Shown here in pieces: positions 10,855 through 44,220 of a DNA stretch of 64,000 nt. This DNA is from Mauremys mutica (Eukaryota > Chordata > Testudines > Geoemydidae). The notes beneath the pieces were generated by a model. That model worked only from the letters and a program-made list of their open reading frames with translations, did no database searches and was not told the DNA's origin. Positions within the stretch are counted from its first letter, which is position 1; each line of letters begins with the position of its first letter. The stretch lies in contig NC_059084.1 in assembly GCF_020497125.1 (NCBI RefSeq), positions 33,696,203 through 33,760,202 on the forward strand, in the 5' to 3' direction. A program made the position numbers and the translations under genes.

Positions 10855-12826
10855 TAATTTAAGGAATATTTTTAAACTAAAATCAGGGGCTTAATAATTA
10901 TTACTGGCTATTTACCATTCACTGTGATCAGCTGACATGTAGAGATCAATAGGAAGGATACAGAAAGCATTGTCCATATTACCCTTGGCTTCCTCTTAAT
11001 GCCCATTGTACACCCTGGCCTCGCCTTTACCAAACTTCACCTTCTACTCTTCCTAGTCTCCATGATACAGTACGACTGCCCTTTTCTCATCTCTGCAGCC
11101 CCCAATGCCCCTTGGCCCTGGGTACATTCTTGCTTGTGCAGCCGGTGCTGAAGCTGGTACCGTGGTTTCTATTTTTAGTGAGCTAGCTAGAGTACAGCTA
11201 GAGCGGCTACAGGAGATTCCATTCACACCCCTGGCTGCAGTGTAGACGCACCCCACATATGTAAACTGAATTATTGAGTCAGGCCTCTTTCCATCAGTCG
11301 GCTGTTTTTGACTTGGCAAATTAGCGTAAATATCGAGGTCCCTTGGACTGGTATAGCTTATCCCCCTTTGGAATGAACTATCCTAATACAAGCAGCTTTA
11401 TATCAGTGTAGTTGCATCCAGTCACATTAGATGAGTGTCCCCCTCACGGCTCCCACTGGAGGCCTCAGGGCAGCCCAGAACGCAGCCCTTCACCTCAGTT
11501 TCCCTTGTTCGTTCCACAAATAAAATTCACATGCATTTTTTTCCAGTCCAATAGCAACAGATCCCCATTTAGGTTTCATTTATTAACTTAACATTCAAAA
11601 CTAAAGGACAGATGACACCTTCCCACCAGTTACCTACACCCCAAACTCCCCCTGTCCGGCCTGAGTTCTGCCCGCCTTAGCAGGCCACTCCCAGCTCTTC
11701 CTAGCTGGAGCAATTCCCCCAGTCTCAGGGTTTTCCCTCATTCACTCTCTGAACTTTCACTTCAGCCTCCTGAGTTTTCCTCTTCCCCCATCCCCGTTCT
11801 GCCCTTTATTGGAAATGACCTGAGTCCCCTCAGGTGTGGACCCTTCTCTAACTAGGCCCTGTCACAGGCAGAGATAGGCAAATATAGTTTAAATGGTGCC
11901 ATTTCTATGTGTAGACAAGTCTTGACACATTTATTCCTCACACTGGACACGAAGGGGAGAGATAAGGGGAGGTCTGACAAGAGAGACGACAGAAAGAGAA
12001 GACTCAGTTTAGTTCTTCTATTGCACGATGCTTTTTGTGACACAGACACAGTTATTAGGGTCACTAAGAAAATTGAGAAAAATGAGAAGGAACTGGTGGA
12101 AAACATCCTCTGGGAGTGAAAGTATTCTCAGGACAGAGATTTGGCTGTAAATGTACAGGCTGGGTTTTCCCATAAAAGGCCGATGTTAGGCAACCAAATC
12201 CTATGGGCAGTGAATGGGAGTTGGGCACCTCGCACCCTTTTGTCTCATTTGGAAATGGTGGAGCAGATAGGGCAGTGGACTGAGACTCTGGATAGTTGGT
12301 TTCCTGGTATGAGCACAGTGAATGATTCCGCCCCTCTGGGATTCACCAACCCAGCTTGGCTGATGGCAAACCCTGCAGGCACCCAAGTGTTTGCAGAAAA
12401 TAGGCTGCAGGTGCTACTGGCCATGCCCTGTGGAGCCTCACACCAGGCACCCGGATGCCAAGTCCCCAGAGTGACGCACAAACCTGGGGAAGTTGCACGT
12501 TCCCCTGCCTGAGTCTCTTCCAGGGCAGGTCAGGTGCCCAGGGGCTTTGAAAAATTCCACTCGGACTCCAACTACCTGGAAAAAACTGGCCCAAAATTGT
12601 TGTTGAAAATGGGCAAATAAGAGGCCTGTGCTGGTGTCCTGTGTTCTGGGGCACAGGTCAAAGGGTTTCCTTTGGCTTTTCTCTTCCTTTGAATGATGCC
12701 TGGGGATGAAATACACTCCATGAAAGGAAAGTTAATTATTCAATTTTCTAATGCTGGATTTTCATGCTGATATTGCAACACAGTAATTTTAGAATGCAGG
12801 TGTCTGATTTTTCAGGGGTTTGTGTG
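10855..12826. other. Right part of unit 1, intergenic
   Basis: About 2 kb without a supported gene. 10855-11400 aligns with 61785-62760, and 11460-12826 with 21500-22889 and 40040-41370. About 11510-11720 is extra sequence absent from those copies. Several 60-120 codon frames here are not conserved as frames among the paralogues. Confidence 0.55.
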
Positions 12827-13287
12827 TATATCTAGATGTCTCTCACCCTACCCGGAATAGATACCCAGTGTTCCAGCTGAGTTCATTTCGCCTGCAGCCT
12901 CTCACTGAGTACAATCTCCCCTCATTCTCTGAACTTTGAGGAGGCACAAGTTCACGTCTCCCACAAGCCCAGTGATACCCACCTGTGGCATCTTATATAG
13001 GTCCTATAAGTCTCTACCCAAGTCTCCTTCTCTTCCTGCTGTAGTAGTACCAGCCCAGTAGTACCCACCTGTGGCATCTTATATAGGTCCTAAAAAGGCT
13101 GGGTCACAGGTTTGAAGAGGTCTTTCCATCTCCACTTTCTCCTCTCTGTAACAGCCGTGACTTTGTAAGACCATGACTACAAGACCAGTGAAGTTCAGGG
13201 AAACACGACCTGGGACTACAGCAGACTTTGGTGCAGGCCCTACCCCAGCCCATGTTATAGCTATTTTAAACCAAAGAAATTGACCAA
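12827..13287. repeat. Left end of tandem OR unit 2
   Basis: Paralogous to 968-1191, 28946-29149 and 41376-41750. It has only a short GT run where units 1 and 3 have expanded TG tracts, and lacks their hAT insertion. It contains a partial local repeat of GTACCCACCTGTGGCATCTT. Non-coding. Confidence 0.75.
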
Positions 13288-14238
13288 TTAGCATGCTCCA
13301 AACTTGAATTTCCTGCAAGCTTTCCTCAAGGCCTCCTGGACCACTTTGTTTCTCAGGCTGTAGATGAGGGGATTGACCAGGGGAGTCAGGACTGTGTAGA
13401 CGACAGAGAGAACTTTCTTGAAGTCACTCAGGATGTCTGTCGTTGGGAACATATAAACAATCAGCAGGGTTGCATAATAAATGCTCACCACAATCAGGTG
13501 GGAGGAGCAGGTGGGAAAGGCCTTTTGCCTCCCAGTAGTGGACGGGATTCTCAGGATGGTGGTGATGATGCAGATGTAGGACATCAAGGTAAGCAGGAAT
13601 GGGACCAGTAAGAAAATCAAGCTGAGTGTGAAAGCCAATGTTTCCATCAGGTGAGGGTCATTGCAGGAGAGTTTTACAAGGGGGATAAAATCACAAAAAA
13701 AATGGTCAATACTATTGGGGCCACAGAACGTTAACTGTGATATCAACAATGTTGTTATGTTACTACCTAAGAAGCCACCTAGCCAAGAGCCACCCACGAG
13801 CTGCAGGTAAGACCTGTGACTCATACGGGCTGCATAGTGCATTGGATCGCATATGGCTAAATATCGATCATAAGACATCACTGACAGGAGAAGGCATTCT
13901 GTACCAACCAGAGAACCAAAGAAATAATATTGTGTGACACACCCATTAAATGAAATAGTCCTGTCCCCAGTCAGGAGACCAGCCAGCATCCTGGGCAGGA
14001 TGGTGGAGCTGTAGCAGGTCTCCAAGCAGGACAAGTTCCCCAGGAAGAAGTACATGGGGGTGTGAAGGTGCTGATCAGCCACAACTAGCACAATGATGAG
14101 AACGTTCCCAGCCACAGTCATGATGTAGATCACTAGGAACAGCAGGAAGAGAAGGATCTGCAGTTCTGGGAGGTCCCCGAATCCCAGGAGGATAAAATCT
14201 GTGACAGATGTTCCATTTCCCTGTTCTGGGTTCGCCAT
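13288..14238 (-). CDS. OR2: intact class II olfactory receptor
   Basis: Single-exon odorant GPCR of 316 residues, expected in the plasma membrane of olfactory neurons and coupled to G-olf by family knowledge. Start ATG at 14238, with a splice acceptor 12 bases upstream. N8-G-T is a glycosylation site. TM1 has AGNVLIIVLVV, then LHTPMYFFLGNLS (59-70). C100 and the loop-2 cysteines (172, 182, 192) are present. MSYDRYLAIC is at 121-130, KAFPTCSSHLIVV at 239-251 and PLVNPLIYSLRN at 286-297. FPTC replaces the usual FSTC. The length and all hallmark motifs are normal, so it is probably functional. The closest repertoire is OR11A1-like, inferred from motif resemblance only. Confidence 0.93.
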   Translation of the reverse strand: MANPEQGNGTSVTDFILLGFGDLPELQILLFLLFLVIYIMTVAGNVLIIVLVVADQHLHTPMYFFLGNLSCLETCYSSTILPRMLAGLLTGDRTISFNGCVTQYYFFGSLVGTECLLLSVMSYDRYLAICDPMHYAARMSHRSYLQLVGGSWLGGFLGSNITTLLISQLTFCGPNSIDHFFCDFIPLVKLSCNDPHLMETLAFTLSLIFLLVPFLLTLMSYICIITTILRIPSTTGRQKAFPTCSSHLIVVSIYYATLLIVYMFPTTDILSDFKKVLSVVYTVLTPLVNPLIYSLRNKVVQEALRKACRKFKFGAC

Positions 14239-14250
14239 GGGGTGTGTCTA

Positions 14251-14270
14251 CTGGAAAGAAATGAAATCTG
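14251..14270 (-). promoter_or_regulatory. Probable 3' splice site upstream of OR2 ATG
   Basis: The minus strand reads TTTCATTTCTTTCCAG, ending 12 bases before the ATG. It is a strong pyrimidine tract with AG, consistent with a non-coding 5' exon further upstream. Confidence 0.6.
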
Positions 14271-17200
14271 CCACATAAATGAAGAACATTCACTCAATAA
14301 AATGTCAGCACTATTTTCATTGTCCCCCTCTGCTGGCTACTGGAATGATGGGTTATTGGAGAATTGAGACCAGGGGAGGGGTAATGACATCTCATGATCC
14401 CTGGGGCAGATTTCGTATCTGAGGAGGCTGCAGCTTCAACAAAACATTAATCTCTCTGGAAACTCATGTAGTAACTTGACAGGTGGCACGAAGCACTCAA
14501 ATATTAAGGTGATGGGGCTTAGGTACCACAGTACAAAAACATGTTGGTTGAAATAGTCACGTGTTTCACTGCCTGTTGTATCAAAGCAGAACAGTGTCCT
14601 TTATAGATTGGAGATCCATGGGAGAAACGGGCCAGGATTTGATATTTGAAATGAAGCCGCAACAGATAAACAAACCAAACAATTAAGGCTGGGATTTGCA
14701 GTGTGTGGGCAGCCAACTCCAAGTGAATTGCAGTGGAAATATGGCGCCTAAGTCTATCAGAGCTATTTGAAATTTTTTCTTATCAGACCAATGCCTCTCC
14801 TTTAATTGTCCTGTGGTCAGACTCTCTACATATAGAAATCGGACCATCATTACAATACAAAACCAAAACAACTCTTGCAAGAAAGCACCACATTAGCTGG
14901 AAATTGATCCTCTCTTGTAAGATAAAATTCTGTATAAAATTTGAAATTTGTAAGAAATGTGCAATTTTCATATTATGAGAGTGGTGTAGAACCCAAATTT
15001 CCATTTCATCTGCAAATCCATGATTTCAAATGCTGGCTTTCATTCCAATTTTACTTTTTAAAAAATATTTACCTATTTTAAATTCATTTCTAGGATATTT
15101 TTATGTTATATTACATTGTGTTTCATAGTTATTTACATTTCTTTCTATATTATTTAATTTAATTTTATATTATATAATTAAGCTCTACAGTAATTATTTT
15201 CCTAAATAAAAGTATGTAGAAATTGATCTGTTCCCCTGGAACATTTTGATCTCTATCAAGAAAACATTTTTCCATCAAAAATGCCAATCAGAAATTATCA
15301 GCTCTACATTTTCTTCCTTATCTTTGGTTAAAAGTAACAGTAACCCTCTTTCTCTCACGCTCTCTCTCTCTCTAGTCTGCCACTACTGTCTTTCTCCCCA
15401 TTACTGACCCTTAAAGAAAGTGGGTGGGTGTGGTCATTTCTTTTCCTGGACTGACTTACTAATCTTTATTAACTGTTCAGTAAGGCCCTGATCATGCACA
15501 GAGTGATGCACAAGGTTAATTTTACACCCCGGGAATAATTCTGTTCCATCCAAGACTTCCATGCTGACATCTAAGATAAAATTTCCACTGACTTCAAGGA
15601 TGGAGCCCCTCTGATTTCAATGGGATTTGGACAGCGAACGCCTTGAGCTTTCATTAAACGTACAGCTCAGCTGGATTTGATTTCCATCGACAGACACTGG
15701 TAAAGGTCGATATCAGCTGATACAACCAAACCAACAACAGAAACTATCAGGAAGAGTGGGCCTCTCCCAGCACCTTGCACCTGCAGGGATGGTGTCACTG
15801 GCCCCATGACTGTGCAGGGAGCCCTCTGCACCCATCTGTCCTGGGAGTCAATGAGTGGGGCTGGGACAGCAGAGCTGCAGAGGGCTCTCGGCATGGCTGC
15901 ATGGCTGGCAACACCCATCCCTGCAGGCGCAAGGTGCGGGGAAGGCTGCGGCCATGGTGGGCCTGGGCTGTGAGGAGGAGGGTGAGTCTCTGGCGGTGGG
16001 GGAGGCCACCCCCCTGCCAAATGGTTTCTGCCCATCGATGGAGCAGTTCAACAATGAGGTGACCACTCTCGTGTCTGGGGGCTCCCCGCCATCCTCCTCC
16101 TGCTCCCAGCCCCGGCCATGGATCTCTGCTCCACTGGGCCAGAGCAGCCGCCTTCCTTGCCCCTTGTGCCCTGGTGTCTTGGATCCCTCGGCCGGTTGGG
16201 AGCCCCTCACATCCTGCTGGCAGCGCTGCCCTCGCCATGACCCACAACTTAACCCCCACTGAGCTTCCTGAGACTGTAAAAATTAATACTTAAAAGTTAG
16301 GAGAAAAATAATCCAATATTAACCCTCTAAGGGGAGAAACAAAACTGATTTGTGCCAAGTCTACATATAGCCAGTGCCTGCCCCCGGAGCACCGAGCGCA
16401 GCAGCCACAGCAGCTCTGCTTTCCCCCTGGCACTTTATTAAAGCTCTCAACACCCCATTAGGTAGGGGTCAGGAGGGGAGGGTAGAGAGGAAGGAAGGCT
16501 GCTCCGGTGTTTGAAGTGCTAGCCTTGGACTTCACAGAGGTTGGTTCATTTCCCTGCTTTTTCACCAGCTCCTTGTGTGACTTTCAGGCCAGATTTCCAA
16601 ATGCTGGAAGGTACCTAACAATGCACCCAGGTGCCTGAGTAGGGGCCATACTTAATGCCCATCAATTTCCCATCTCACTGGGGAGGCTGTGTGTTGAGGT
16701 TCCAAAATACCTTTATATATCTGCCCCTCTGTGCACCAGGTCCTGTCTGTAATGCAGGGGTAATAGCATGGCATAGGGCTGCTGGGAGGATAGATATATT
16801 CAAGGCAGCAGGATGCCCAGATACTAGGGTGATGGGGGCCAGGTAAGCACCTAAAATAGATGTGACTTGAGAGTCTTTTCTTTTTCCAAATTCTGTCATT
16901 TTCCTTTGGGTGAGGAGTTTAAGAGAGATCAGTGCCCAAATCCCCTTGGATTCTCATGGTGTTAATCACCAAACAAACCTACGTTGCTTCAAATTCCTCA
17001 AGATTCATGGAGCAGAGAGGGAGGAAAAGGATGATTTACCTCTAAGGCTGGTCTCTCAGCAGCTGGAGTCTCTGTTGTCTTCTCCTCACGCAGCATTTCT
17101 GGCACCGGGATCCAGGTTATTCAGTCCATTTTCTCCCCCAACTGTATTCACCTACTTCCACATACCCAGTAACTAGAATGACAACCTATAAAAGCTACTG

Positions 17201-18459
17201 AGTCTCCATTCCATGTCTCGTAATGTGACCTCATACCCTCTGTCAAATGGAGAACGTCTTTTCTGGTTCATTATATATCCTTCTGCAGGGAGAGGCAGTC
17301 TCCTGAGGCACGTCTGCTGTGAGGAACGCAACAGGCAAGGGCAACTTGGTATTTACTGATATTCTCTAAAACTAAACCAGAGTCAAGCTTCTAATCTCAG
17401 AGGGAGAGTTCTGGAGAGGGAAGAAATTTATAATCCTGAACAAATCTCTCTCTTTATTGCATGAACGCCATAGTGACTGTCAAGAAATAACGCACTAATT
17501 CTAGATTTTACTGCTGCCGCAGTGATTTAGGCACTGAGCTCCCATCCAATTCCTTTAGAAAGGTTGGAAAATGTCAGCAGTTAGCTGATCTTACATTTTC
17601 TCTAACCAGTCCTCCTGTTGCCCTCCATAGCAAGTGCCCATGTACCCAGTTCTAGTGCAATGAACTCACTCAATTAGTTCAGGTAACATTTTAAAAAAAG
17701 TCTAAGTGATTTAAAAGCCTAAATCCCATTTTCAAACGTTTCTCAATTACTCAGGCTTAGCAACCTAAATCTCACTGAAAGGCAATGGGATTTAGCCTCC
17801 TATGTTACTTTTGAAGTTTGCTTAAGTGTTTTTGAAAATGTTACCCTTAGCTCAATGCCTGCTGGTCTTTTCTGAAATGAAAAAGTGCAGCCTGCTGCTC
17901 AGATAAAATGCAGTTGTAACAGGGTGCTTTATACATTTAGGTTGGGAATTTCAAAGGGGGTTAATGTACGGAATAAGGACCCAATAAGGACCCAACTTCC
18001 AACTTGCTATGAGAATTTGGCACCTAACTCCCACAGGGTTCTTGGGAAGGCCCATACCATGGCAGCATGGAAGTCAGAGACTTGCGATTATAAAGTACAA
18101 ATAATTTCTTCCCATTCCCAGAAAAGTTTCAGGGTCACACGCTAATAATACAAATTATGTATCTTGTTCCAGAACTGGTGTGTTAGAGTTTGAGAACCAA
18201 AGAATAGCACTGAGTCCATCCTGTAACGGACTGTGTTCTACATTCACACTAGCCAGTTTGTGGGCCAGTTCGGGTACAGTCAATATAATCTTTTCAGATG
18301 TGTGTATTGCAGTATATTCTACAACTTGACTCCAACACTGTCCTTTTTCAGTGTGAAGTTTTTGACCTACTGTCGCTTTTTGCCCTAAAGGGAAGGTTTC
18401 TTCCAGTATTTGCAGAAGGATACAAATATCCACTTATATCTGAATGAAAAACCAACTAT
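14271..18459. other. Intergenic block of unit 2, no gene
   Basis: About 4.2 kb aligning almost continuously with 30870-37465 of unit 3 (minus its hAT insertion). It includes an OR 5' flank, an AT-rich stretch (15050-15200), a short CT tract (about 15350-15375) and a GC-rich stretch (15770-16260; also at 32340-32880 and, shortened, at 45410-45590). The GC-rich part has open frames on both strands. None is conserved as a frame across copies, so I do not call a gene. Confidence 0.55.
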
Positions 18460-21240: not shown

Positions 21241-22889
21241 GCATTTTCCTTGGATTGTCGGAGTTTATTTCAAAGCCAGGAACGTAGGCAGGTATTTTCA
21301 CTGGGAGTCACACGAGGTCTCCACCCAGATTTTGCACCAGGATAACTATTTTGGTTAGTGGTACGAATGTGTTATGGAACTAGCTGCAGTGCTACACCGT
21401 CTCATGTGGACATGGTTTACCAATAGATCACTTATTCCCCTTCCCATGTGGGAATGAACTATCCCACCAGAAGCACTGTCACATCAGTATCATTGCATTT
21501 ACTTGGTGTACACAAGTGGACACCTCCTGGCGCCCCTTAGAGGACTCAGGGCAGCCCAGAATGCAGCCCCTCACCTCATAGCCCCTCGCCTCTTCATTCC
21601 CCATATAATGGAGAACTTTCCCCGGGCTCAGGGTTTTCCCTGCAGGAGCCTCTCTCACTCTCTGAAGTCTCACTCCAGCCTCCTGAGTTTGCGTCTTTCT
21701 CTGGCCTCCTTCTACCCTTTATTGGAAATGGCCTGATTCCCCTCAGGTGGGGGCCCTTCTCTAACCAGGGCTGGCTCGGCCTTGGCTCTCCAGCCCAAGG
21801 GCACACGGCCTGTCACAGGCAGGGTTAGGCAGATATAGGTAACATGATGCAACATTTATGTGTAGACAATCCTTGACGCATTTATTCCTCACACTGGAGA
21901 CGAAGGGGACAGATAATGGGAGGTCTGACAACAGAGACGACATAAAGAAAAGACTTAGTTTAGTTCTTTTTTTACACGATGCTTTTGGTGCAACACACAC
22001 AGTTATTAAGGTCGCCTAGAAAAAGGTAAAACAGGAGAAGTAACTGGTGGAAAACATCCCCTGGGAGTCGAAGTAATTCTCACGCTAGTGGTTTGACTCT
22101 AAATGTACAGGCTGGGCTTTCCCATAAGGGGCGATGTTAGGCTCCCAAATCCTATGGGCCGTGAAAGGGAGATGGGCATCTAATACCCTTCGGTCCCATT
22201 ATTAATTACAACTGGATGTGGTGGAGCAGACAGGGCACTGGACTGGGACTCTGGAGAGTTGGTTTTCTGCCACGAGCCTGCTGAGTAACTCTGGGCAGGT
22301 AATGTCACCTCGTTCTGCCTGACTTTCCCCAGCTATAACATGAGGACAAGGGTGTGGAGCTAGGGCTAGAATCACAAAACTCCCACTTTAGGCACCCGAA
22401 TCCCAGAATCAGAATCCCCCCGGGATTCACAAAGCCAGCTCGGCTGCTGGCAAAACCTGCAGGCACCCAAGTGTTTGCAGTAAATAGGCTGTAGGTGCCC
22501 CTGGACATATCCTCTGCAGCCCCACACCAGGCATCCAGATGCTGAGGCTCTGGAGTGATGCACAAACCTGGGGAAAGTGCACGTTCCTCTGCCTGACTCT
22601 CCTCCAGGGCCGCATCCCACAGGGCAGGTGCCCAGAGGCTTTGGAAAATCCCACTAGGCCCCCAAGTATCTAGAAACAACTGGCCCTAAATCATTGCTGA
22701 AAAGTGGGGAAATACAAATTCTGTGCTGGTGTCCTGTGGCCAAGGCCAGAGGGTTTCCTTTGGCTTTTCTCTTCCTTTCGAAAACAGCCTGGGGATGAAA
22801 TAGATACTAGGAAACAAAGGTTAACTGTATAATCGCCTAACACTGGAGTTCCAGGCGGACGTTGCAAGCCTATGTTTTTATAATGCAGG
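21241..22889. other. Right end of unit 2, intergenic
   Basis: Aligns with 39782-41345 and 11460-12826. Non-coding. Its last bases, TAATGCAGG, are the Gypsy insertion site. The paralogous empty sites read AGAATGCAGGTG (about 12797) and AGAATGCAGGCA (about 41345). Confidence 0.6.
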
Positions 22890-23716
22890 TGTCATAAACA
22901 GTTAGTTAAGGGTTAAGGTCTCTTTTACCTGTACTGGGTTAACAAGCAGTACCTGATGACCACCTGACCAGAGGACCAATCAGGGACAAGATATTTTCAA
23001 ATCTCTGTGGAGGGAAGTTTTTTTCTGTGTTCTTTGTTTTGAGTTGAGTCTCTCTTGGGAGTTAAGGGAGTCCAGACATCTTAATCAAGTCCTCCCAGGT
23101 TTCTGCAGTATTGTTCTTCTATTCAGTCTAGTGAGTATTAGAAAGGCGAACTAGTATTTTTTTTACTTTTATTTCTGCATTGGCAATTGTGTGTTTTGCT
23201 GAAGTAATCTCTTTATTTCTATTGCTGTACTTTGCTTTTACTGAGAAAGAAAGGGGGAGGGGGAGTTCTCTCCAGGTTTATAATTTAGACTCTGGGTATT
23301 GTTCCATCCTGGTATGACAGAGATAGTGTACTTTCTTTTTTTGTTCTTTTTAATAAATTCTTTTCTTTTCTTTGGCCTTGGTTAATTCCTTCTCTTGTGG
23401 AGATTCAAGGGAAGGGGAGGGGGAAGAGTGAGTTCCTCCTGAGGTTGATTCACAGAGTTGAATCGGTGTGTATCTCTCCAGAGTGGCTAGGAGAGAGGGA
23501 GGGGGGAAGTGGGCTGCTTCCCTGTGTGTAGAGAGTCAGGGAGATTGAATCTGTGTTCCCCAGGGAAAGTTGGGGGAACAGGCAGTGTGTCAGACACTTA
23601 GAAAACTGACTGGTGGCAGCGTATCAGATCTAAACTAGGATTTTAGTTTAGGGGAGTCCATGCAGGTCCCCATCTTGTGAACCCAAAAGCTCCAAGTGGG
23701 GGAGAAACCTATGACA
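22890..23716 (+). repeat. 5' LTR of the Gypsy element
   Basis: Starts TGTCATAAACAG and ends CTATGACA, with short inverted TGTCATA/TATGACA termini. A candidate polyadenylation or TATA-like AT-rich zone is near 23350 (TTTTAATAAATTC). Confidence 0.95.
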
Positions 23717-23933
23717 TGGTGAGCAGCGGTGACTTGAACCAGAGAGCCATTGAGAGCTATTCTCTTCTCCTAAAGCAGGAATGCAGGTTAGGAGGGAGAA
23801 ATACCCCGAAGGCAAACAAACAAAGTTTTCTAACAAGGTATTGTTAGAAGGAGTTTTTTTCAGCTGGGCTAACCTGAAAAGAGCTATTCTCTTCTTCTAG
23901 AGCAGGAAAGCAACCTGAGAGAAGAGGGGGAGA
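23717..23933 (+). other. Leader of the Gypsy element; gag deleted
   Basis: The interval between LTR and protease is too short for gag. It contains an imperfect direct repeat (GAGCTATTCTCTTCT at about 23754 and 23881, each followed by an AGCAGGAA word) that may mark the deletion breakpoints. The bases after the LTR, TGGTGAGCAGCGG, are the presumptive primer site; I cannot name the tRNA. Confidence 0.6.
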
Positions 23934-25967
23934 GTGGGCGGGAAGAAGATTACGGCGTGGAGAGACACCGCAGCGAGCGTGTCAGTTATCCACCAGTCCT
24001 TAGTGGACCCGAAATTCATCAACCCAGAGGTCAAAATCACAATTTCTCCATTCATGTCAAAATCGGTAAGCTTACCCACAGCTGAATTGCCTGTCCAGTA
24101 CAAGGGCTGGTCAGGAACGTGGACTTTTGCTGTCTATGACAATTATTCCATCCCCATGCTACTGGGGGAAGACTTGGCCAACCATGTGCAGCTGGCCAAG
24201 AGGGGGAGAGTGGTCACCCGCAGCCAGGCCAAACAAGCAGGCACTCCCATCCCTGTTCCTGAGCCATCCACCAGGACCCCGTCTGTGTTACCAGAGACCC
24301 AGACAGAGGTGGTGGAACCGGATCCCATGCCAACAACTACAGCAGCCATAGTACATCCAGTCCCAGGACCGGAACTGGAAGAGCAACCAGCGGCAGAACC
24401 TGCGCCAGGGGGCGCCAACGGGCCTGAACTGGCAGAAGCAGCAGACAACCCTACCCAAGAGGCTCAGCCAGAGCCTGAAATAACACCTAGTGCACCAGCA
24501 GAGAGCGGTCCACAGTCAACGGAAACAACCTCATCACCTACATCGCATCCAGAGGGATCAAGCCCAAGTCCACAGTCTACGGAGAAACTGGTGTCTCCAG
24601 CCTCAAGGGAACAGTTCCAGACTGAGCAGGAAGCCGATGACAGCCTTAAAAAAGCATGGGCGGCGGCACGGAGCGACCCACCGCCTCTCAGTTCTGCGAA
24701 CCGATCCCGGTTCGTTGTAGAACAAGAACTTTTATATAAAGAGCTTCTTTCTGGTGGACACCAGGAAGGCTGGCATCCTCAAAAACGGTTGGTGGTTCCA
24801 ACTAAGTACCGGGAAAAGCTCTTAAGCTTAGCCCATGATCATCCCAGTGGCCATTCTGGGGTGAACAGAAGCAAGGACAGGTTGGGAAGGTCCTTCGACT
24901 GGGAGGGGATGGGCAAGGCCATTGCCAATTATGTCCGGTCTTGTGAGGTATGCCAAAAGGTAGGAAAACCCCAAGACTAGGTCAAGGCTCCTTTCCAGCC
25001 ACTTCCCATAATTGAGGTCCCATTTCAGCGAGTAGCTGTGGATATTATGGGTCCTTTCCCAAAGAAGACCCCCAGAGGAAAGCAGTACATACTGACTTTT
25101 GTGGACTTTGCTACCAGATGTCCGGAAGCAGTAGCTCTAGGCAACACCAGGGCTAAAACTGTGTGCCAGGCCTTAACTGACATTTTTACCAGGGTAGGTT
25201 GGCCCTCCGACATTCTTACAGATTCTGGAACAAATTTCCTGTCAGGGACCATGAAAGACCTGTGGGAAGCTCATGGGGTGCATCACTTGGTTGCCACCCC
25301 GTATCACCACCAAACTAATGGCCTGGTGGAGAGGTTTAATGGAACTTTGGGAGCCATGATCCATAAATTCGTGAATGAACACTCCAATAATTGGGATCTA
25401 GTGTTGCAGCAGTTGTTGTTTGCCTACAGGGCTGTACCACATCCCAGTTTAGGATTCTCACCATTCGAGCTTGTGTATGGCCATGAGGTTAAGGGGCCAT
25501 TACAGTTGGTGAAGCAACAATGGGAGGGGTTTACGCCTTCTCCAGGAACTAACATTCTGGACTTTTTAAGCAACCTACAAAACACCCTCCGATACTCTTT
25601 GGCCCTTGCTAAAGAGAACCTAAAGGATGCTCAAGCAGAGCAAAAGGTCTGGTATGATAGACATACCAGAGAGCGTTCCTTCAAGGTAGGAGACCAGGTC
25701 ATGGTCTTGAAGGCGCTACAGGCCCATAAGATGGAAGCGTCATGGGAAGGACCATTCACGGTCCAGGAGCGCCTGGGAGCTGTTAACTACCTCATAGCAT
25801 TTCCTAATCCCTCCTTAAAGCCTAAAGTGTACCATGTTAACTCTCTCAAGCCCTTTTATCCCAGAGAATTACAGGTCTGTCAGTTTACAGCCCAGGAGGA
25901 GATGACGCTGAGTGGCCTGAAGGTGTCTACTACGAAGGACAAAGAAATGGTGGTGTGGAAGAGGTGA
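23934..25967 (+). pseudogene. Gypsy pol, protease-integrase frame, one internal TAG
   Basis: One reading frame, broken only by TAG at 24978-24980. The N-terminal part carries a retropepsin-like segment (KKITAWRDTAASVSVIH) in which the usual DTG reads DTA. It continues through MLLGEDLANHV to a Pro/Glu/Thr-rich linker of about 150 residues. The integrase HHCC zinc finger follows (HDHPSGHSGV, CEVCQK near residues 337-341). After the stop comes the integrase core with D (VDIMGPF), D (LTDSGTNF) and E (HHQTNGLVERFNG), then a GPY/F-type C-terminus (SWEGPFTV) and HVNSLKPFY. The GTG at 23934 is only the first in-frame start-like codon. The natural start would lie upstream in the missing gag-pol. Without readthrough the integrase is not made. 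Confidence 0.9.
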
Positions 25968-27385
25968 CCCTCTCCACAACCCTGGAACGTCTACAGCGGC
26001 AACAGATCAAGGAGCTGTGCACTCACTTCGGCCCTTTGTTCTCAGCCAACCCAGGACGGACTGAGCAAACGTACCACACCATTGACACAGGTAATGCTCA
26101 CCCGATTAGAACCCCATCCTACCGGGTGTCACCTCATGCCCAAGTTGCTATTAAACGGGAGATTGAAAACATGCTGGAGATGGGTATCATCCGCCCCTCT
26201 ACCAGTGCATGGGCATCTCCAGTGGTTCTAGTTCCCAAACCAGATGGGGAAATACGCTTTTGCGTGGACTACCGAAAGCTTAATGCTGTAACTCGCCCCG
26301 ACAACTACCCAATGCCACGCACCGATGAGCTATTGGAGAAACTGGGACGTGCCCAGTTCATCTCTACATTGGATTTAACCAAGGGGTACTGGCAAGTACC
26401 ACTAGATGAACCCGCCAAAGAAAGGTCAGCCTTCATTACCCACGCAGGGGTGTATGAATTTAATGTACCGGTACTTCCGTTCGGACTGCAGAATGCACCC
26501 GCCACCTTCCAAAGGCTAGTAGATGGTCTACTAGCAGGATTGGGAGAATGTGCAGTTGCCTACCTCGATGATGTGGCCATTTTTTCTGATTCATGGCCCG
26601 AACACCTAGAACATCTGGAAACGGTCTTTGAGCGCATCAGGCAGGCAGGACTAACTGTTAAGGCCAAAAAGTGTCAAATAGGCCAAAACAGAGTGACCTA
26701 CCTAGGGCACCAGGTGGGTCGAGGAACCATTAACCCCCTACAGGCCAAGGTGGAGGCTATCCAAAACTGGCCTGTCCCACAGTCAAAGAAACAGGTCCAA
26801 TCTTTCTTAGGCTTGGCCGGATATTACAGGCGATTTGTACCACACTACAGCCAAATCGCTGCCCCACTAACTGATCTAACCAGAAAAACACAGCCAAATG
26901 CAGTTAAGTGGACTGAGGAGTGTCAGAAAGCCTTTAACCAGCTTAAGGCGACGCTCATGTCTGACCCTGTGTTAAGGGCCCCGGACTTTGACAAACCCTT
27001 CCTAGTGACCACAGATGCATCTGAATGTGGGGTAGGAGCAGTTCTCATGCAGGAAGGATCGGATGATAACTTCCATCTTGTCATGTTTCTCAGCAAGAAA
27101 CTGTCTGAGAGGGAAAGCCACTGGTCCATCAGTGAAAAAGAATGTTACGCCATTGTGTATGCCCTGGAAAAGCTATGCCCATACGTTTGGGGATGGCGGT
27201 TCCAGCTACAAACCGACCATGCTGCGCTAAAGTGGCTTCACACTAACAAGAGAAATAACAAGAAACTTCTCCGATGGAGTTTAGCTCTCCAAGATTTTGA
27301 TTTTGAAATTCACCACATTTCAGGAGCTTCCAACAAGGTTGCTGATGCACTCTCTCGTGAAAGTTTCCCAGAATCAAATGGTTAA
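25955..27385 (+). CDS. Gypsy reverse transcriptase-RNase H frame
   Basis: Polymerase and RNase H of the retrotransposon, 476 codons uninterrupted. RT motifs are KREIENMLEMGIIRPSTS, ASPVVLVPKPDG, FCVDYRKLN, LDLTKGYWQVPL (catalytic D140), LPFGLQNAPATFQRLVD and YLDD at 203-206. The connection has FLGLAGYYRRFVPHYS. RNase H shows D354 (TTDASECGVGAVL), E396, D421 (QTDHAALKWL) and D464 (KVADALSR), so its acidic residues are all present. The frame stays open for at least 100 nt upstream of 25955, overlapping the integrase frame (DAEWPEGVYYEGQ). It was probably fused to integrase in the parent and separated by a 1-nt indel near 25895-25905. The start given is only a GTG in the overlap. Confidence 0.9.
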   Translation: MEEVTLSTTLERLQRQQIKELCTHFGPLFSANPGRTEQTYHTIDTGNAHPIRTPSYRVSPHAQVAIKREIENMLEMGIIRPSTSAWASPVVLVPKPDGEIRFCVDYRKLNAVTRPDNYPMPRTDELLEKLGRAQFISTLDLTKGYWQVPLDEPAKERSAFITHAGVYEFNVPVLPFGLQNAPATFQRLVDGLLAGLGECAVAYLDDVAIFSDSWPEHLEHLETVFERIRQAGLTVKAKKCQIGQNRVTYLGHQVGRGTINPLQAKVEAIQNWPVPQSKKQVQSFLGLAGYYRRFVPHYSQIAAPLTDLTRKTQPNAVKWTEECQKAFNQLKATLMSDPVLRAPDFDKPFLVTTDASECGVGAVLMQEGSDDNFHLVMFLSKKLSERESHWSISEKECYAIVYALEKLCPYVWGWRFQLQTDHAALKWLHTNKRNNKKLLRWSLALQDFDFEIHHISGASNKVADALSRESFPESNG

Positions 27386-27534
27386 CAACTGTTCTTGAAA
27401 CGTGAAAAATCTCGTTGGTTACATACATAATAGTATCTGTAATAGTACATGTGTTTTTTAATCTGTTTATTTTAAAGTTCTAGGAGGAAATCACCGCCAG
27501 TGTGGGTCCCCCACTGTCTGTGATTTGGGGGGCG

Positions 27535-28361
27535 TGTCATAAACAGTTAGTTAAGGGTTAAGGTCTCTTTTACCTGTACTGGGTTAACAAGCAGTACCTG
27601 ATGACCACCTGGCCAGAGGACCAATCAGGGACAAGATATTTTCAAATCTCTGTGGAGGGAAGTTTTTTTCTGTGTTCTTTGTTTTGAGTTGAGTCTCTCT
27701 TGGGAGTTAAGGGAGTCCAGACATCTTAATCAAGTCCTCCCAGGTTTCTGCAGTATTGTTCTTCTATTCAGTCTAGTGAGTATTAGAAAGGCGAACTAGT
27801 ATTTTTTTTACTTTTATTTCTGCATTGGCAATTGTGTGTTTTGCTGAAGTAATCTCTTTATTTCTATTGCTGTACTTTGCTTTTACTGAGAAAGAAAGGG
27901 GGAGGGGGAGTTCTCTCCAGGTTTATAATTTAGACTCTGGGTATTGTTCCATCCTGGTATGACAGAGATAGTGTACTTTCTTTTTTTGTTCTTTTTAATA
28001 AATTCTTTTCTTTTCTTTGGCCTTGGTTAATTCCTTCTCTTGTGGAGATTCAAGGGAAGGGGAGGGGGAAGAGTGAGTTCCTCCTGAGGTTGATTCACAG
28101 AGTTGAATCGGTGTGTATCTCTCCAGAGTGGCTAGGAGAGAGGGAGGGGGGAAGTGGGCTGCTTCCCTGTGTGTAGAGAGTCAGGGAGATTGAATCTGTG
28201 TTCCCCAGGGAAAGTTGGGGGAACAGGCAGTGTGTCAGACACTTAGAAAACTGACTGGTGGCAGCGTATCAGATCTAAACTAGGATTTTAGTTTAGGGGA
28301 GTCCATGCAGGTCCCCATCTTGTGAACCCAAAAGCTCCAAGTGGGGGAGAAACCTATGACA
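27535..28361 (+). repeat. 3' LTR of the Gypsy element
   Basis: Same 827-bp length and termini as the 5' LTR. By eye only one substitution separates them (near 27612). It is followed by the target duplication GCAGG. Confidence 0.95.
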
Positions 28362-28373
28362 GCAGGTATCATA

Positions 28374-29332: not shown

Positions 29333-29744
29333 CAGTGGCTCTCAGCCAGGGGCAAACATAGCCTGGGGGTACACATAGGTTTTCCCGGGGGCACATCAAC
29401 TCATCTAGAGATTTGCCTAATTTTACAACAGGTTACATAAAAAACACAAGCAAAGTCTGTACAAACTAAAATTTCATACAGACAATGACTTGTGTACACT
29501 ACTCTATAGACTATACACTGAAACATAAGAACAATATTTGTATTCTAATTTATTTCTTTCATAATTATATGCTAAAAATGAGAAAGTCAGCAATTTTTCA
29601 GTAGTAGGGCGCTGTGCTAGTTTTGTCTTTTTATGGCTGATTTTGTGAGCAAATAGTTTTTAAGTGAGGTGAAACTTTGGGATACGCAAGACAAATCAGA
29701 CTCCTGAAAGGGGTACAGTAGTCTGGAAAGCTTGAGTGACACTG
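29333..29744 (+). mobile_element. hAT-type non-autonomous element, copy in unit 3
   Basis: Same element and insertion point as 1192-1599 (CAGTGGCTCTCAGCC start, CTTGAGTGACACTG end). Shared insertion shows that the left ends of units 1 and 3 descend from a common copy. Confidence 0.65.
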
Positions 29745-29868
29745 TGTAAGAGCAGGACACAAAGCCCAGTGGAGCTCAGGGAAACACGACCTGGGACTAC
29801 AACAGACTTTGGTTCAGGCCCTAACTCAGGCAATGTTATATCTATTTTAACCAAAGGAAACTGACCGG

Positions 29869-30818
29869 TTAGCATGGTCCAAACATCAATTTCCTGCAAG
29901 CTTTCCTCAGGGCCTCCTGGACCACTTTGTTTCTCAGGCTGTAGATGAGGGGATTGACCAGGGGAGTCAGGACTGTGTAGACGACAGAGAGAACTTTCTT
30001 GAAGTCGCTCAGGATGTCGGTGGTAGGGAACATGTAGACAATCAGCAGAGTTGCATAATAAATGCTCACCACAATGAGGTGGGAGGAGCAGGTGGAAAAG
30101 GCCTTTTGCCTCCCGATGGTGGATGGGATTCTCAGGATTGTGGTGATGATGCAGATGTAGGACATCAAGGTAAGCATGAATGGGACCAGTGAGAAAAGCA
30201 AGGTGAGTGTAAAAGTCACCATTTCCATGAGGTGAGGGTCATTGCAGGAGAGTTTTACAAGGGGGATGAGATCACAAAAAAATGGTCAATACCATTGGGG
30301 CCACAGAACGTTAACTGTGATATTGAGAACATATTTATGGTATTACCTAGGAAGCCACCTATCCAACAGCCACCCGCGAGCTTCAGGTAAGACCTGTGAC
30401 TCATACGGGCTGCATAGTGCAGTGGATTGCATATTGCTAAATACCGATCATAAGACATCACCGATAAGAGAAGACATTCTGTAGCAACCAGAGAACCAAC
30501 AAAATAAAATTGTGTGACACATTCATTGAATGAAATAGTCCTGTCCCCTGTCAGGAGACCGACCAGCATCCTGGGCAGGATGGTGGAGGTGTAGCAGGTC
30601 TCCAAACAGGACAAGTTCCCCAGGAAGAAGTACATGGGGGTGCGAAGGTGCTGATCAGTCACAACTAGCACAATGATGAGGACGTTCCCTGCCACGGTCA
30701 TGATGTAGATCACTAGGAACAGCAGGAAGAGAAGGAGCTGCAGTTCCTGGAGATCTCCAAATCCCAGGAGGACAAATTCTGTGATGGACGTTTGGTTTCC
30801 CTGCTCTGGGTTCACCAT
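29869..30818 (-). pseudogene. OR3: olfactory receptor with a single 1-nt homopolymer deletion
   Basis: ATG at 30818 (MVNPEQGNQTSITEF), with a good splice acceptor eight bases upstream. TM1, LRTPMYFFLGNLS, MSYDRYLAIC and FCGPNGIDHFF are normal. The A run at 30276-30282 (T run on the coding strand) has 7 bases instead of the 8 in OR2, which turns HFFCDF into HFFVISSPL and a stop at 30255. The other frame then continues correctly: MEMVTFTLTLLFSLVPF, LMSYICII, KAFSTCSSHLIVV, PLVNPLIYSLRNK and CRKLMFGPC. No other lesion is visible. It may be a very young pseudogene or an intact gene with a homopolymer sequencing error. Class II, same subfamily as OR2. Confidence 0.85.
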
Positions 30819-30826
30819 GGGTTTGT

Positions 30827-30845
30827 CTGTGGGAAAGAAATGAAA
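30827..30845 (-). promoter_or_regulatory. Probable 3' splice site upstream of OR3 ATG
   Basis: The minus strand has TTTCATTTCTTTCCCACAG ending eight bases before the ATG, aligned with the OR2 acceptor. Confidence 0.55.
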
Positions 30846-31920
30846 TCTACCACATAAATGAAGAACATTCACTCAATAAAACATAACCTTTTATTTCATT
30901 GTCTCCCTCTGCTGGCTACTGGAACGATGGGTGAGTGGAGAATGGAGGTCAGGGGAAGGGAAATGCCATCTCGTGATCCCTGGGGCAGGTTTCATATCTG
31001 AGCATCCTGCAGGTTCAACAAAACTTTAAACTTTAATCTCTTGAAACTCATGTAGACTGGTGGCACCAACCACTCTAACACTATGGTGATGGTACAACAG
31101 TTCAAAAACATACCGCTTGAAATAGTCACACATTTCACTGCCTGGTGTATGAAAGCAGAACAATGTCCTTTCTAGATTCGAGATCCATGGGCCAAACAGG
31201 ACGCAATTTGATATTTTAGTGGATGCCGTAACAAAGAAAGAAACCAAGCAACTAAGGGTTGGATTTGCAGTGTGTGGGCAGCCAACTCCAAGTGAATTGC
31301 AGTGGAAATGGGCTGTCTAACTCTACCAGAGCCATTTGAAAGTTTTTATCATCAGACAAATGCCTCTCCTTCCCTAGGACAATATGTCATTGTCCTGCCG
31401 TCGGACACTACATATAGAGATGGGACCTTCATTAAAAACCAAAACAAAGAAACAAAAAATCCTGCTAGAAATGACTGCGGTAGCTAGAAATTGATCCTCT
31501 CTTGCAAGAAAAAATTCTGGATAAAATTTATAAGAAATTTGCAGTTTTCGTATGATGAGAGTTGTGTAGAATCCGAATTTCCATTTAATCTGCAAATCCA
31601 TGATTTCAAATGTTGAATTTCATTCCACTTTATTTTTAAAAATGTATTTACCCATTTTTAATTTAATTTCTATAATATTTTTATTTTATATTATATTGAG
31701 TTTTATACTTATTTACATTTATTTCTATGTATTTTGATATAATTTTATTTCATAATGCTCTCTACAGTAACTCTTTTCCTAAACAAAATTGCATAGAAAT
31801 TGATATGTTCCCTGGAAACATTTTGAGGTCTATCAAGAAAAATTTTTTCATCAGAAATGCCAATCAGAAATTTTTGTCAGCTGTATGTTTTCTTCTTTAT
31901 GTTTGGTTAAAAGTCATAGT

Positions 31921-31963
<43 letters not shown>

Positions 31964-34773
31964 GCTACTTCTCTCTCTCTCTCTCTCTCCCCATTAATGA
32001 TCCTTAAAGAGAGAGGGTGGGTGAGGTCATATCTTTTCCCAGACTGATTTACTAATATTTATTAACTGCTCAGTAAGGCCCTGATCCTGCACAGAGTGAT
32101 GCAGAAGGTTAATTTTACACCCCGGGTATAATTCTGTTCCATCTGAGACATCGCCTCTGACAGCTAAGATAAAAGTTCTACTGAATTCAAGGATGGGCTC
32201 CTTTGATTTGAGTGGGATTTGGCCAGTGAACGCCTTGAGCTTTGTTTAAACGTACAGCTCAACTGGATTAAATTTCCATCGACAGACATTGGTAAAGGTC
32301 AATATCAGCTGGTACATCCAAACAACAACAGAAACTATCGGGAAGAGTGGGCGTTAGTGCGGCCTCACCTTGCGCCTGCACCTCCAGGGATGGTGTCACC
32401 GGCTCTGCGGCTGTGCAGGGAGCCCTCTGCACCCAGCTGTCACAGGAGTTAATGAGCGGGGCTGGGACAGCAGAGCTGCAGAGGGCTCTTTGCATGGTCG
32501 CATGGCTGGCGACACCCATCCCTGCAGGCGCAAGGTGTGGGGAAGGCTGCGGCCATGGTGGGCCTGGGCTGTGAGGAGGAGGAGGGTGAGTCCCTGGCTG
32601 TGGGGGAGGCCACCCTGCTGCCGAATGGTTTCTGCCCACCTACGGTGCAGCTCAACTATGAGGTGGCCACTCCAGTGGCCGGGGACTCGCCGCCATCCTC
32701 TTTCTGCTCTCAGCCCTGGCCATGGATCTTTGTTCCACTGGGCCAGAGCAGCCGCCTTCACTGCTACTTACACCCTGGATCCCTCGGCCGGTCGAGAGCC
32801 CCCCACCCCGACTCCACTGGCAGCGCTGCCCTTGCCCTGACCTGCACCTTAACCACCACTGAGATTCCTGTGACTGTAAAAATTAATAGTTAAAATTGGG
32901 CGGGGGGGAAATCATAAAGAAAAAATAATCCCAATATTAACCCTCTTAGGGGAGAAACAAAACCGATTTGTGACAAGTCTACTTATAGCCAGTGTCCGAA
33001 CAGCAGTTCTGCTCCCCCCTGGGTAGTTCACTCAGTGCCCCATGATGGGGAAGCTGCCATGGAAGGGGTCAGGATGGGAGGTTAGAGAGGAACGAAGGCT
33101 GCTCCTATGTATGAAGTGCCTGCCTTGGACTCGGGAGATGTTGGTTTGTTTCCCTGCTTCTTCAGCTCTTTGTGTGACTTTCAGGGCAGATTTCCAAAGG
33201 CTGCTAGGTATCAAACAATGCCCACTGGTGCCTGAGTAGGGGCCGTACCTAACGCCCATCGATTTCCAATCCCACTGGGGGGTCTGGGTCTTGAGGCGCC
33301 AATAAACCTCCATAAATCCACCCCTCTGTGCACCAGGTCCCATCTGTAAAGCAGGGGTAATAGCACAATATAGGGGTGCTGGGAGGATAGACTTATTCAA
33401 GATAGTGAGGTGCCCAGATACTAGGGTGATGGAGGCCAGGTAAGGACCTATGATAGATGTGACCTGACAGATCTTTCCTTTTTCCAAATTCAGTCATTTT
33501 GCTTTGGGTTGGGAGCTTGAGAGAGATCAGTGCCCAGTTCCCCAAAGATTCCTGTGGGGTTAGTAACCTAGGAAACCTACATTGCTTCAAACTCCTCAAG
33601 ATTCAAGGAGCAGGGAGGAAAAGGGTGATTTACCTCTAAGCCGGATCTGTGAGCAGCTGGAGTCTCTGTTGTCACCTTCTTACACAACATTTCAGGGACC
33701 AGGATCCAGGTTGTTCAGTCCATTTTCTCTCCTCACTGCATTCACCTACTTCCACGTGCCCAGTAACTAGAACAACAACCTAGAAAAGCTACCGAGGCTG
33801 GTAACGTGACCCCGTGCCTCATACCCTCTGTCAAATGGGGAACATCTTGTCTAACTCATTATATATCCTTCTGCGGGGAGAGGTGGTCTCCCGAGGCCCG
33901 TCTGCTGTGGGGAAAGCAACAGGCAAGGGCAAGTTGGTATTTACTGACATTCTCTAAAACTAAACCAGCGTCAATTTTCTAATCTCAAAGGGTGAGTCCT
34001 GGAGAGGGAAGAAACTTCTAATCCTGAAACAAATCTCTCTATTGCATGAACTCTATGGTAATTGTCAAGAAATAATGCACTAATTCTTGATTTTACCGCT
34101 GCCTCAGTGATTTAGACACTGAGTTCCCATCCAATTCCCTTAGAAAGATTTGAAAATATCAGCAGGTAGCTGATCTTACATTTTCTCCAATTAACCCCTC
34201 TGTTGTCCTTTGTAGCAAGTGCACATGTACCCAGTCACCATCCAATGAGCTCACTCAATTAGTTCAGGTAAAGTACTTAAAAGAGTCTAGGTGATTTAGA
34301 AGCCTAAGTCCCATTTTCAAAGTTTCTCACTTACTGAGGCTTAGCAACCTAAGTCTAACTGAAAGGCAATGGGGCTTAGCCTACTATGTCACTTTTGAAG
34401 TTTGCTGAAGTGTTTTTGAAAATGTTACCTTTAGCTCAATGCCGCCTGGCCAGTCTTTTCTGAAATGAGGAAGTGCAGCCTGCTGCTCAGATAAAAGGCA
34501 GGTGCAACAGGGTGCTTTACATATTTAGGCTGGGAACTTCAAAGGGGGTTAATGTACCAAATAAAGACCCAACTCCCATGACATTGCTATGAGAATTTGG
34601 CAACTAACTCTCTGAGGCTTCTTGCAATGGCCCATACCACGAAAGCATGGAAGACAGAGACCTGAGATTATAAAGTACAAATAATTTCTTCCCATTCCCA
34701 GAAAAGTTTTAGGCTCACATGCACCTTCAGTGCCACAGCACATAATACAAATTATGTAATCTTGTTGCAGAAC
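30846..34773. other. Intergenic block of unit 3, no gene
   Basis: Paralogous to 14271-18150. It includes an AT-rich part (31620-31780), a CT microsatellite and the GC-rich segment 32340-32880. No frame is preserved against the unit 2 copy. Confidence 0.55.
31925..31990. repeat. (CT)n microsatellite, interrupted
   Basis: About 32 bp of CT repeats, a GTCTGCTACTT interruption, then more CT. The paralogous site in unit 2 (about 15350-15375) is shorter. Confidence 0.9.
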
Positions 34774-39779: not shown

Positions 39780-41375
39780 TTCTATGGATTATCTGAGTTT
39801 GTTTCAAAGCCAGGAACGTACGGATGTATTTTCACTGGGACTCACATGAGGTCTCCACACAGATTTTGCGCTAGGATAACTATTCTGGTTAGTGGTGTGA
39901 ATGTGTTATGGAAATAGTTATACCGCTACACCCTCTCATGAGGACACAGTTTACCAGTTGATCACTTATTTCCCTTCCCATGTGGGAAGGAACTATCCTG
40001 CCAGAAGCATCATCAAATCAATATCATTGCAACTACTTGGTGTAGACGAGTGGACTCCTCATGTTGCCCCCCTGGAGGACTCAGGGAAGCCAAGAACACA
40101 GCCCCTCATCTCAGTTTCCCTTCTTCATTCGCCGTATAATGGCAGAATTTTGCTGGTCTCAGGGTTTTCCCTGCACTCTCTCACTCTCTGAAGTCTCACT
40201 CCAGCCTCCTGAGTTTGCCTTTTTCCCTAGCCCCCTTCTGCTCTTTATTGGAAATGGCCTGATTCCCCTCAGGTGCGGACCCTTCTCTAACCAGGGCTGG
40301 CTTGGCCTTGGCTCTCCAGCCCCAGGGCACACAGCCCTGTCACAGGCAGAGATGGGCAGATATAGGTAACATGGTGCACCTTCTACGGGTAGACAAACCT
40401 TGCACTTTTATTCCCCACATCAGACAAGAAGGGGACAGATAACGAGAGTTCTGACAGCAGAGATGACAGAAAGAGAAGACTTAGTTTATTGCACAGTGCT
40501 TTTGGTGTAAGACCCACAACAATTAGGGGCTCCTAGAAAAGGTAAAACATGAGAAGCAAATTGGTTTGGCTGTAAAAGTACAGTCTGGGTTTTCTGATAA
40601 GAGGCCAATGTTAGGCAGTAAGATCCTATGGAAAATGAACAGAGGTTGGGCACCTAACACCCTTCGGTCTCAATGTCAATTACAACTGGACATGGTGGAG
40701 CAGACAGAGCACTGGACTGGGACTCTGGAGAGTTGGTTTCCTGCCGTGAGCCTGCTGAGTGACTCTGGGCAGGTAATGTCACCTCGTGCTGCCTGAGTTT
40801 CCCCAGCTATAAAATGAGGACAAGGGTGTGGAGCTAGGCCTAGAATCACAAAGCTCCCAATTTAGGCACCCGAATCCCAGAATCTGGCCCCCGGCATTCA
40901 CAAACCCAGCTCAGCTGCTGGCAAACCCTGCAGGCACCCAAGTGTTTGCAGCAAACGGGCTGTAGGTGACCATGGACGTGTCCTCTGCAGCCCCACACCA
41001 GGTATCCAGAGGCTGAGGCTCTGGAGTGATGTACAAATATGTGCAAGGTGGGCGATCCCCTACCTGACTCACCTGCAGGGCCCCATCCCGGAGGCCAGGT
41101 GCTCAGATGCATTGGAGAATCCCACTGGGCCCCCAATTATCTGGAAACAACTGGCCTAAAATCATTGCAGAAAAATGGGCAAATACGAGGCCTGTGCTGG
41201 TATCCTGTGTTCTGGGGTTTCCTTTGGCTTATCTCTTCCTTTGAAGGGAGCCTGTGGATGACATACACTCTGAGAAACAAAAGTTAATTATTTAATTTTC
41301 TAATGTTGGAGTTCCATGCTGACATTGTAACCCTATATAATTAGAATGCAGGCATGTTATATTTTTTAGGGTGTG
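39780..41375. other. Right end of unit 3, intergenic
   Basis: Aligns with 21255-22889 and 11460-12826. No gene supported. Confidence 0.55.
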
Positions 41376-44210: not shown

Positions 44211-44220
44211 ATTGCTTGAA

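What the first reader, a model, noticed from the sequence alone, without database searches (positions are those of the whole stretch)
22890..28361. Gypsy element with Copia-like gene order and nearly identical LTRs
The sequence shows protease, integrase zinc finger, integrase D-D-E core, RT (YLDD) and RNase H in that order, whereas Ty3/Gypsy normally has integrase last. The known exception is the Gmr1 group. The two 827-bp LTRs differ at one base by my reading and are flanked by GCAGG, so this is one of the youngest insertions in the window and may still be polymorphic.
Basis: partly seen in the sequence, partly recalled or inferred. Interest (0 to 1): 0.8.

Follow-up and report, generated by a model that had tools for sequence, protein, structure and literature searches.

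The report
Broken Gmr1-like retrotransposon in a turtle
This is a damaged copy of a turtle family of jumping genes whose integrase sits before the reverse transcriptase; the unusual order is real but was described long ago, and the fresher point is that a copy with no gag gene and a broken pol gene carries two almost identical ends.

Summary
At 22890-28361 lies an LTR element with 827-bp LTRs differing at one base, a GCAGG target duplication and the order protease, integrase (H2C2, D-D35-E), reverse transcriptase (YLDD), RNase H. Two paralogous empty sites in the window confirm the duplication. RT and RNase H are Ty3/Gypsy type; in Ty3 the same test puts integrase last. The order is family-wide: of 141 listed relatives with both domains, 140 are integrase-first and none integrase-last; 32 of 84 scored matches in the window's own genome lie in an open frame of at least 1,500 aa. 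It is a new turtle member of the known Gmr1-like group, reported source of the SCAN domain; turtle relatives carry SCAN-like gags. By the LTR clock about 94% (at least two thirds) of its private pol substitutions predate insertion, so it was most likely mobilised in trans from a decayed source, though no source is in the assembly; LTR gene conversion is the main rival. A bolder lead: 59 turtle gene models skip all of integrase at one GT-AG-compatible junction.

The parts
22885..22889 (+). target site duplication GCAGG, 5' copy
   Evidence: single copy at paralogous empty sites 12796-12800 and 41348-41352
22890..23716 (+). 5' LTR, 827 bp, TG...CA
23717..23733 (+). primer binding site region (TGGTGAGCAGCGGTGAC), directly after the LTR
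   Evidence: the 13 copies shown start TGG here in 12 cases and TAG in one; tRNA-Leu as primer is recalled, not tested
23717..23929 (+). 5' leader, then deletion junction where gag is missing
   Evidence: 99% identical to the leader of L032, which has 1,543 bp between leader end and protease start; junction found only once in the genome within 3 mismatches
23930..24794 (+). protease (motif D-T-A-A, as in L029-L031) and linker
24795..24965 (+). integrase H2C2 zinc-binding domain
   Evidence: Pfam PF17921, E 1.5e-16
24978..24980 (+). in-frame TAG stop
   Evidence: absent from the 20 fetched copies that hold the site; one other genomic place has a TAG here
25020..25307 (+). integrase catalytic core (D-D35-E)
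   Evidence: Pfam PF00665, E 1.2e-11; spacing
25749..25853 (+). integrase C-terminal domain
   Evidence: Pfam PF22938, E 2.5e-7
24710..25864 (+). candidate GT-AG segment (1,155 nt, in frame) that turtle gene models skip; holds all of integrase
   Evidence: no RNA evidence
25889..25897 (+). frame break between integrase and RT
26231..26716 (+). reverse transcriptase, YLDD, with a 6-bp insertion near 26466
   Evidence: Pfam PF00078, E 7e-34; insertion in 0 of 26 fetched loci and found once in the genome within 3 mismatches
26984..27298 (+). RNase H
   Evidence: Pfam PF17917, E 4.3e-36
27522..27534 (+). polypurine tract region GATTTGGGGGGCG
   Evidence: same or similar in the 13 copies shown
27535..28361 (+). 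3' LTR, 827 bp, one difference from the 5' LTR
28362..28366 (+). target site duplication GCAGG, 3' copy

Best explanation
A non-autonomous copy of a Gmr1-like Ty3/Gypsy LTR retrotransposon family of turtles. Intact members encode one polyprotein of about 1,510 aa: gag (SCAN-like part and, in sea turtle relatives, a CCHC knuckle), protease, integrase, RT, RNase H. They move by ordinary LTR retrotransposition: tRNA-primed reverse transcription from the site after the 5' LTR, plus strand from the polypurine tract, integration with a 5-bp duplication (inferred from anatomy). This copy kept the cis signals but has no gag and a broken pol. Most likely its RNA came from an already decayed source copy and was packaged, copied and integrated by proteins of intact relatives; the gag deletion may have arisen by template switching in that same cycle. 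Shown: anatomy, order, defects, intact relatives, near-identical LTRs. Inferred: trans-mobilisation and its timing.
For: Order and domains; Ty3 control with RT-RH at 595-1011 before IN at 1159-1447. RT and IN trees. 32 of 84 scored RT matches in the genome lie in an open frame of at least 1,500 aa (84 of 18,121 candidates scored); L031 has 0/784 and L029 1/863 LTR substitutions. Window LTRs 1/827, yet 34 private substitutions in 3,375 pol sites where the LTR clock expects about 2, at most about 11. Gag junction and RT insertion found nowhere else. Other copies lost gag and more by different deletions: L009 and L033 with a full 5' LTR, L011, L020, L023 and L026 with a partial one.
Against: No source copy with the same defects is in the assembly; nearest matches are 97% (pol pieces) and 98% (LTR) identical. 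The LTRs of the intact copies L029-L031 are only about 67-82% identical to the window LTR, so that their proteins serve this copy is assumed. LTR homogenisation would mimic recency. 'Private' counts rest on six subfamily members (window, L009-L013). The window is not an outlier for changes at conserved protein columns, and N:S counts (19:12 plus one stop, against 18:21 for L029-L031 together) do not show relaxed constraint convincingly.
Confidence: 0.7

Rival explanations
1. An older Gmr1-like insertion that decayed in place; gene conversion between its two LTRs later made them look young. The gag deletion, stop, frameshift and RT insertion are ordinary decay.
For: No near-identical source in the assembly; each defect searched is found here alone or at one other, diverged or unfetched place; pol branch length 0.014, like other copies of the subfamily; LTR divergence is lower than pol divergence suggests in L009 and L012 too.
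Against: If all 34 private pol changes postdated insertion, about 17 LTR differences would be expected and 1 is seen; conversion would have to cover nearly all 827 bp.
Confidence: 0.27
2. The order is a private rearrangement or chimera of an ordinary integrase-last Gypsy element.
For: None found.
Against: The 25 fetched loci with integrase, and 140 of 141 listed relatives with both domains, are integrase-first; the remaining one (P0139) has integrase on both sides.
Confidence: 0.01
3. A Ty1/Copia element, which has this order by default.
For: Gene order only.
Against: RT matches RVT_1 and RT_RNaseH, with no Copia-type RT hit; the two best solved matches are an RT/RNase H chain (4ol8) and Ty3 Gag-Pol (7q5b, E 1.6e-91).
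Confidence: 0.01

Closest known systems
Gmr1-like Ty3/Gypsy elements (Gmr1 of Atlantic cod; Gmr1-4 of Tetraodontiformes; Gmr1-like of frogs, crustaceans, annelids)
   Same: Ty3/Gypsy RT with integrase upstream of RT (passages in PMC3587641, PMC8220671, PMC2774666); gag-pol as one ORF of 1,506-1,634 aa and consensus of 6.1-6.5 kb in pufferfish (PMC11117352 table passage) against open frames mostly of 1,510 or 1,521 aa and 6.9-7.0 kb for L029-L031
   Different: Turtle host; LTRs 751-863 bp in the 13 copies against 337-518 bp in that table; this copy lacks gag
Gmr1-like gag reported as the origin of the SCAN domain
   Same: Turtle relatives carry a SCAN-like segment before protease; a PMC3424704 passage names a Gmr1-like element as source
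   Different: The window copy has lost this region
Gag-less non-autonomous LTR elements moved in trans (plant examples, recalled)
   Same: Cis signals kept, gag missing, young LTRs
   Different: Here a single copy, not an amplified gag-less family
Ty1/Copia
   Same: PR-IN-RT-RH order (recalled)
   Different: RT lineage is Ty3/Gypsy

Membership tests
Gmr1-like Ty3/Gypsy | Integrase upstream of RT | tested here: met
Gmr1-like Ty3/Gypsy | Ty3/Gypsy-type RT and RNase H | tested here: met
Gmr1-like Ty3/Gypsy | RT and IN phylogeny with named Gmr1 sequences | tested here: inconclusive
   Groups with integrase-first relatives, Ty3 outside, but no row bears the name Gmr1 and Ty3 is the only integrase-last row, on a long branch
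Gmr1-like Ty3/Gypsy | SCAN-like gag | tested here: inconclusive
   Nine relatives scanned: PF02023 above cut-off in P0306 and P0240, below it in P0309, P0298, P0251, P0315 and spider P0198, no hit in P0088 and P0323 (both start downstream of gag). Fetched copies match the P0309 gag piece but were not scanned. Absent from the window copy
Ty1/Copia | Copia-type RT | tested here: not met
Autonomous LTR retrotransposon | Intact gag and pol | tested here: not met
Recent insertion | Near-identical LTRs and intact TSD | tested here: met
Recent insertion | Empty allele in other individuals | not testable with these tools
   one genome only; paralogous empty sites found

The most novel reading that the evidence does not exclude
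In this family integrase behaves as an optional in-frame intron: a GT-AG segment of 1,155 nt (24710-25864 in the window) that holds the whole integrase can be spliced out, giving a Gag-PR-RT-RNase H protein without integrase. Because integrase sits between protease and RT, the integrase-first order would allow this, and could be kept for it. Fifty-nine of 325 listed proteins, from five sea turtle species and Gopherus, show this junction; on the RT tree they are mixed with integrase-containing models, many at distances under 1%; the corresponding joined DNA is not in the window's genome above the level of the reversed-pattern control.
Probability: 0.15. Interest if true: 0.65.

Novelty: new member of a known kind. 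Interest (0 to 1): 0.33.

Why it matters
It shows a family with many intact and some very young Gmr1-like copies in a turtle genome, related to the lineage held to have given vertebrates the SCAN domain, and gives a case of a gag-less, pol-broken copy with near-identical LTRs. If integrase skipping were confirmed by RNA, the question of what the integrase-first order is for would become testable.

Tried and rejected
Protease D-T-A-A as a defect: rejected, because L029-L031, open through gag, protease, integrase and RT, have D-T-A-A too. Frame break as a programmed frameshift between IN and RT: rejected, because L029-L031 and many turtle proteins read through in one frame. Frame break as a shared ancestral defect: one other place in the genome has it, L034, but that relic is 15.6% diverged, so recurrence in a G run is likelier. 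TAG: one other place, C1:325073030, also has it; not fetched, so kinship there is open. Spider '297' proteins as integrase-last control: failed, they are integrase-first. Distant relatives in viral contigs: 29 pattern matches, none confirmed. Relaxed constraint in the window copy: changes at columns invariant in relatives put it second of 9 (protease-linker), fifth of 7 (IN) and fourth of 15 (RT) representatives, so not an outlier; N:S counts not decisive. Splice strength: with recalled matrices the donor ranks 29 of 201 GTs and the acceptor 16 of 315 AGs, neither strong nor absent. No tRNA or Rfam family in the window. The integrase-skip count is biased: the searches that gave it cap protein length at about 899 and 1,375 aa, below the full 1,510 aa, and one annotation can be copied to many loci by homology. 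Confidence in the best explanation went from 0.72 to 0.70, and the conversion rival from 0.25 to 0.27, after one search showed how unlike the intact copies' LTRs are.

Full report
Anatomy. The element spans 22890-28361 exactly as reported. LTRs are 827 bp and differ at one base; GCAGG flanks both sides. The window holds duplicated units; the one unit I scanned has an olfactory receptor frame. Two paralogous stretches without the element hold one GCAGG, at 12796-12800 and 41348-41352, followed by homologous sequence. The insertion is thus younger than those duplications (flank identity 77-84%).

Order. Pfam scans of the three open frames give H2C2, rve and the integrase C-terminus before RVT_1 and RNase H. 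As a control, the same IN and RT queries hit Ty3 Gag-Pol at 1159-1447 and 595-1011, integrase last. Of the 325 proteins listed by three searches, 141 match both window IN and window RT over more than 80 residues; 140 are integrase-first, none is integrase-last, one has integrase on both sides. The searches list only the best 120 of thousands of hits (two of the three), so integrase-last elements further off were not sampled.

The window's genome. It is held as G000, 2.48 Gb, unnamed. The RT search scored 84 of 18,121 candidates; by my count of that table 32 of the 84 lie in an open frame of at least 1,500 aa with no stop in the match. I fetched 26 loci. Twenty-five hold integrase, in each case 5' of RT; L033 is a deletion copy without it. 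L025, L029, L030 and L031 have gag, protease, integrase and RT in one frame. LTR substitutions are 4/797, 1/863, 3/856 and 0/784, with 5-bp duplications, that of L029 being a run of C. So the family has intact members, some very young. The LTRs of L029-L031 are only about 67-82% identical to the window LTR, while those of its own subfamily (L009-L013, L032, L033) are 91-98% identical.

Relatives and tree. The RT tree (101 rows, quick method) puts the window with Gopherus P0314 (99), inside a turtle clade (100), next to a second turtle family (95) and then newt rows (91); the IN tree (43 rows, careful) agrees on the turtle clade (100/100) and its tie to P0088 (96/84). Most deep forks are open, and Ty3 is a single long branch, so monophyly of integrase-first elements was not tested. 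Gags of several relatives have a SCAN-like segment, most below Pfam's cut-off, and most a CCHC knuckle.

Literature seen. Passages only: Gmr1-like elements are described as Gypsy elements with integrase upstream of RT in PMC3587641 and PMC8220671, and with Copia-like integrase order in PMC2774666; the Silurana frog genome has about 200 Gmr1-like copies (PMC4131045); pufferfish Gmr1-4 are in PMC11117352; SCAN is said to derive from Gmr1-like gag in PMC3424704; some zebrafish elements encode SCAN between LTR and pol (PMC8672886). Goodwin and Poulter 2002 and Emerson and Thomas 2011 were seen only in reference lists; neither is held. In this library no paper holds Gmr1, turtle and Gypsy together; the two with SCAN domain, turtle and retrotransposon and the four with Gmr1, integrase and spliced did not look on point from the listing, apart from PMC11011659, whose passages I saw and which leaves SCAN aside. 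That is not proof of absence from print.

Defects. Compared with L032, 1,543 bp holding gag are missing near 23930, with about one base of shared sequence at the junction; that junction occurs once in the genome within 3 mismatches. TAG at 24978-24980 is absent from the 20 fetched copies that hold the site but present at one other place. The frame break is also in the old relic L034. The 6-bp RT insertion beside the LPFG motif is in none of the 26 fetched loci and found once in the genome. A linker shortened by up to 33 bases lies in a length-variable stretch, partly shared by L010 and L032, and is not counted as a defect. The tool warns that its genome searches may miss repeats, so uniqueness is as far as it sees.

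Timing. One LTR difference predicts about 2 changes in 3,375 pol sites since insertion (upper 95% bound about 11); 34 private substitutions are seen against L009-L013. If all 34 were later than insertion, about 17 LTR differences would be expected. Hence most private change, and probably most defects, predate the last copying event, which points to trans-mobilisation of a decayed source, unless the LTRs were converted. Age at recalled rates of 0.5-2e-9 per site per year is 0.3-1.2 My, with upper bounds of 1.7-6.7 My. The source is not in the assembly as far as searched: nearest matches are 97% for pol pieces and 98% for the LTR.

Integrase skipping. Fifty-nine of 325 proteins (58 by pattern plus P0314 by eye) join the protease linker to RT at one point, SSSNRSR|E/D-L or close variants, leaving out all of integrase; P0243 shares the left end only. 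In the window this equals a GT-AG segment, 24710-25864, 1,155 nt, a multiple of three. GT is present in the 20 fetched copies, and AG in the 25, that hold those sites; both lie in coding sequence, so this is weak evidence. Integrase-skipping and integrase-containing models are mixed on the RT tree: 8 changes of label, at least 2 forced by well-supported branches. Joined DNA was not found in G000 above the control: 2 matches at 3 mismatches against 6 for the reversed pattern. This fits splicing or annotation habit better than a deletion subfamily, but several single models use other left ends to the same right end, there is no RNA, and annotation may propagate one model. It stays a lead.

Verdict. 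Observation right, classification right as far as tested, order already known. New here are the turtle family (not found in the searches named above), the defects of this copy and the timing argument.

Noticed in passing
4431-5252: Related solo LTR, 78% identical to the window LTR, with ATTTG on both sides.
   Followed up: partly
13160-18175, 29741-34773, 41621-45582: Duplicated units 75-87% identical; the first holds an olfactory receptor frame at 13288-14247 on the minus strand.
   Followed up: partly
L029, L030, L031 (protease): Copies open through pol carry D-T-A in place of the usual D-T-G protease motif, while 83 of 86 aligned listed proteins read D-T-G.
   Followed up: partly
23611 and 28256: A second primer-site-like motif TGGTGGCAGCG lies inside both LTRs, starting 106 bp before their 3' ends.
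   Followed up: no
L016/L017 and L021/L022: Pairs with the same 5-bp target duplication, probably segmental copies of one insertion.
   Followed up: no
P0084, P0121-P0239: Spider proteins named transposon 297 or 17.6 are integrase-first wherever both domains could be placed, except P0139 with integrase on both sides, so those names mislead on order.
   Followed up: partly
L009 after its 5' LTR: A 26-base primer site that looks like a tRNA-Leu 3' end (recalled).
   Followed up: no
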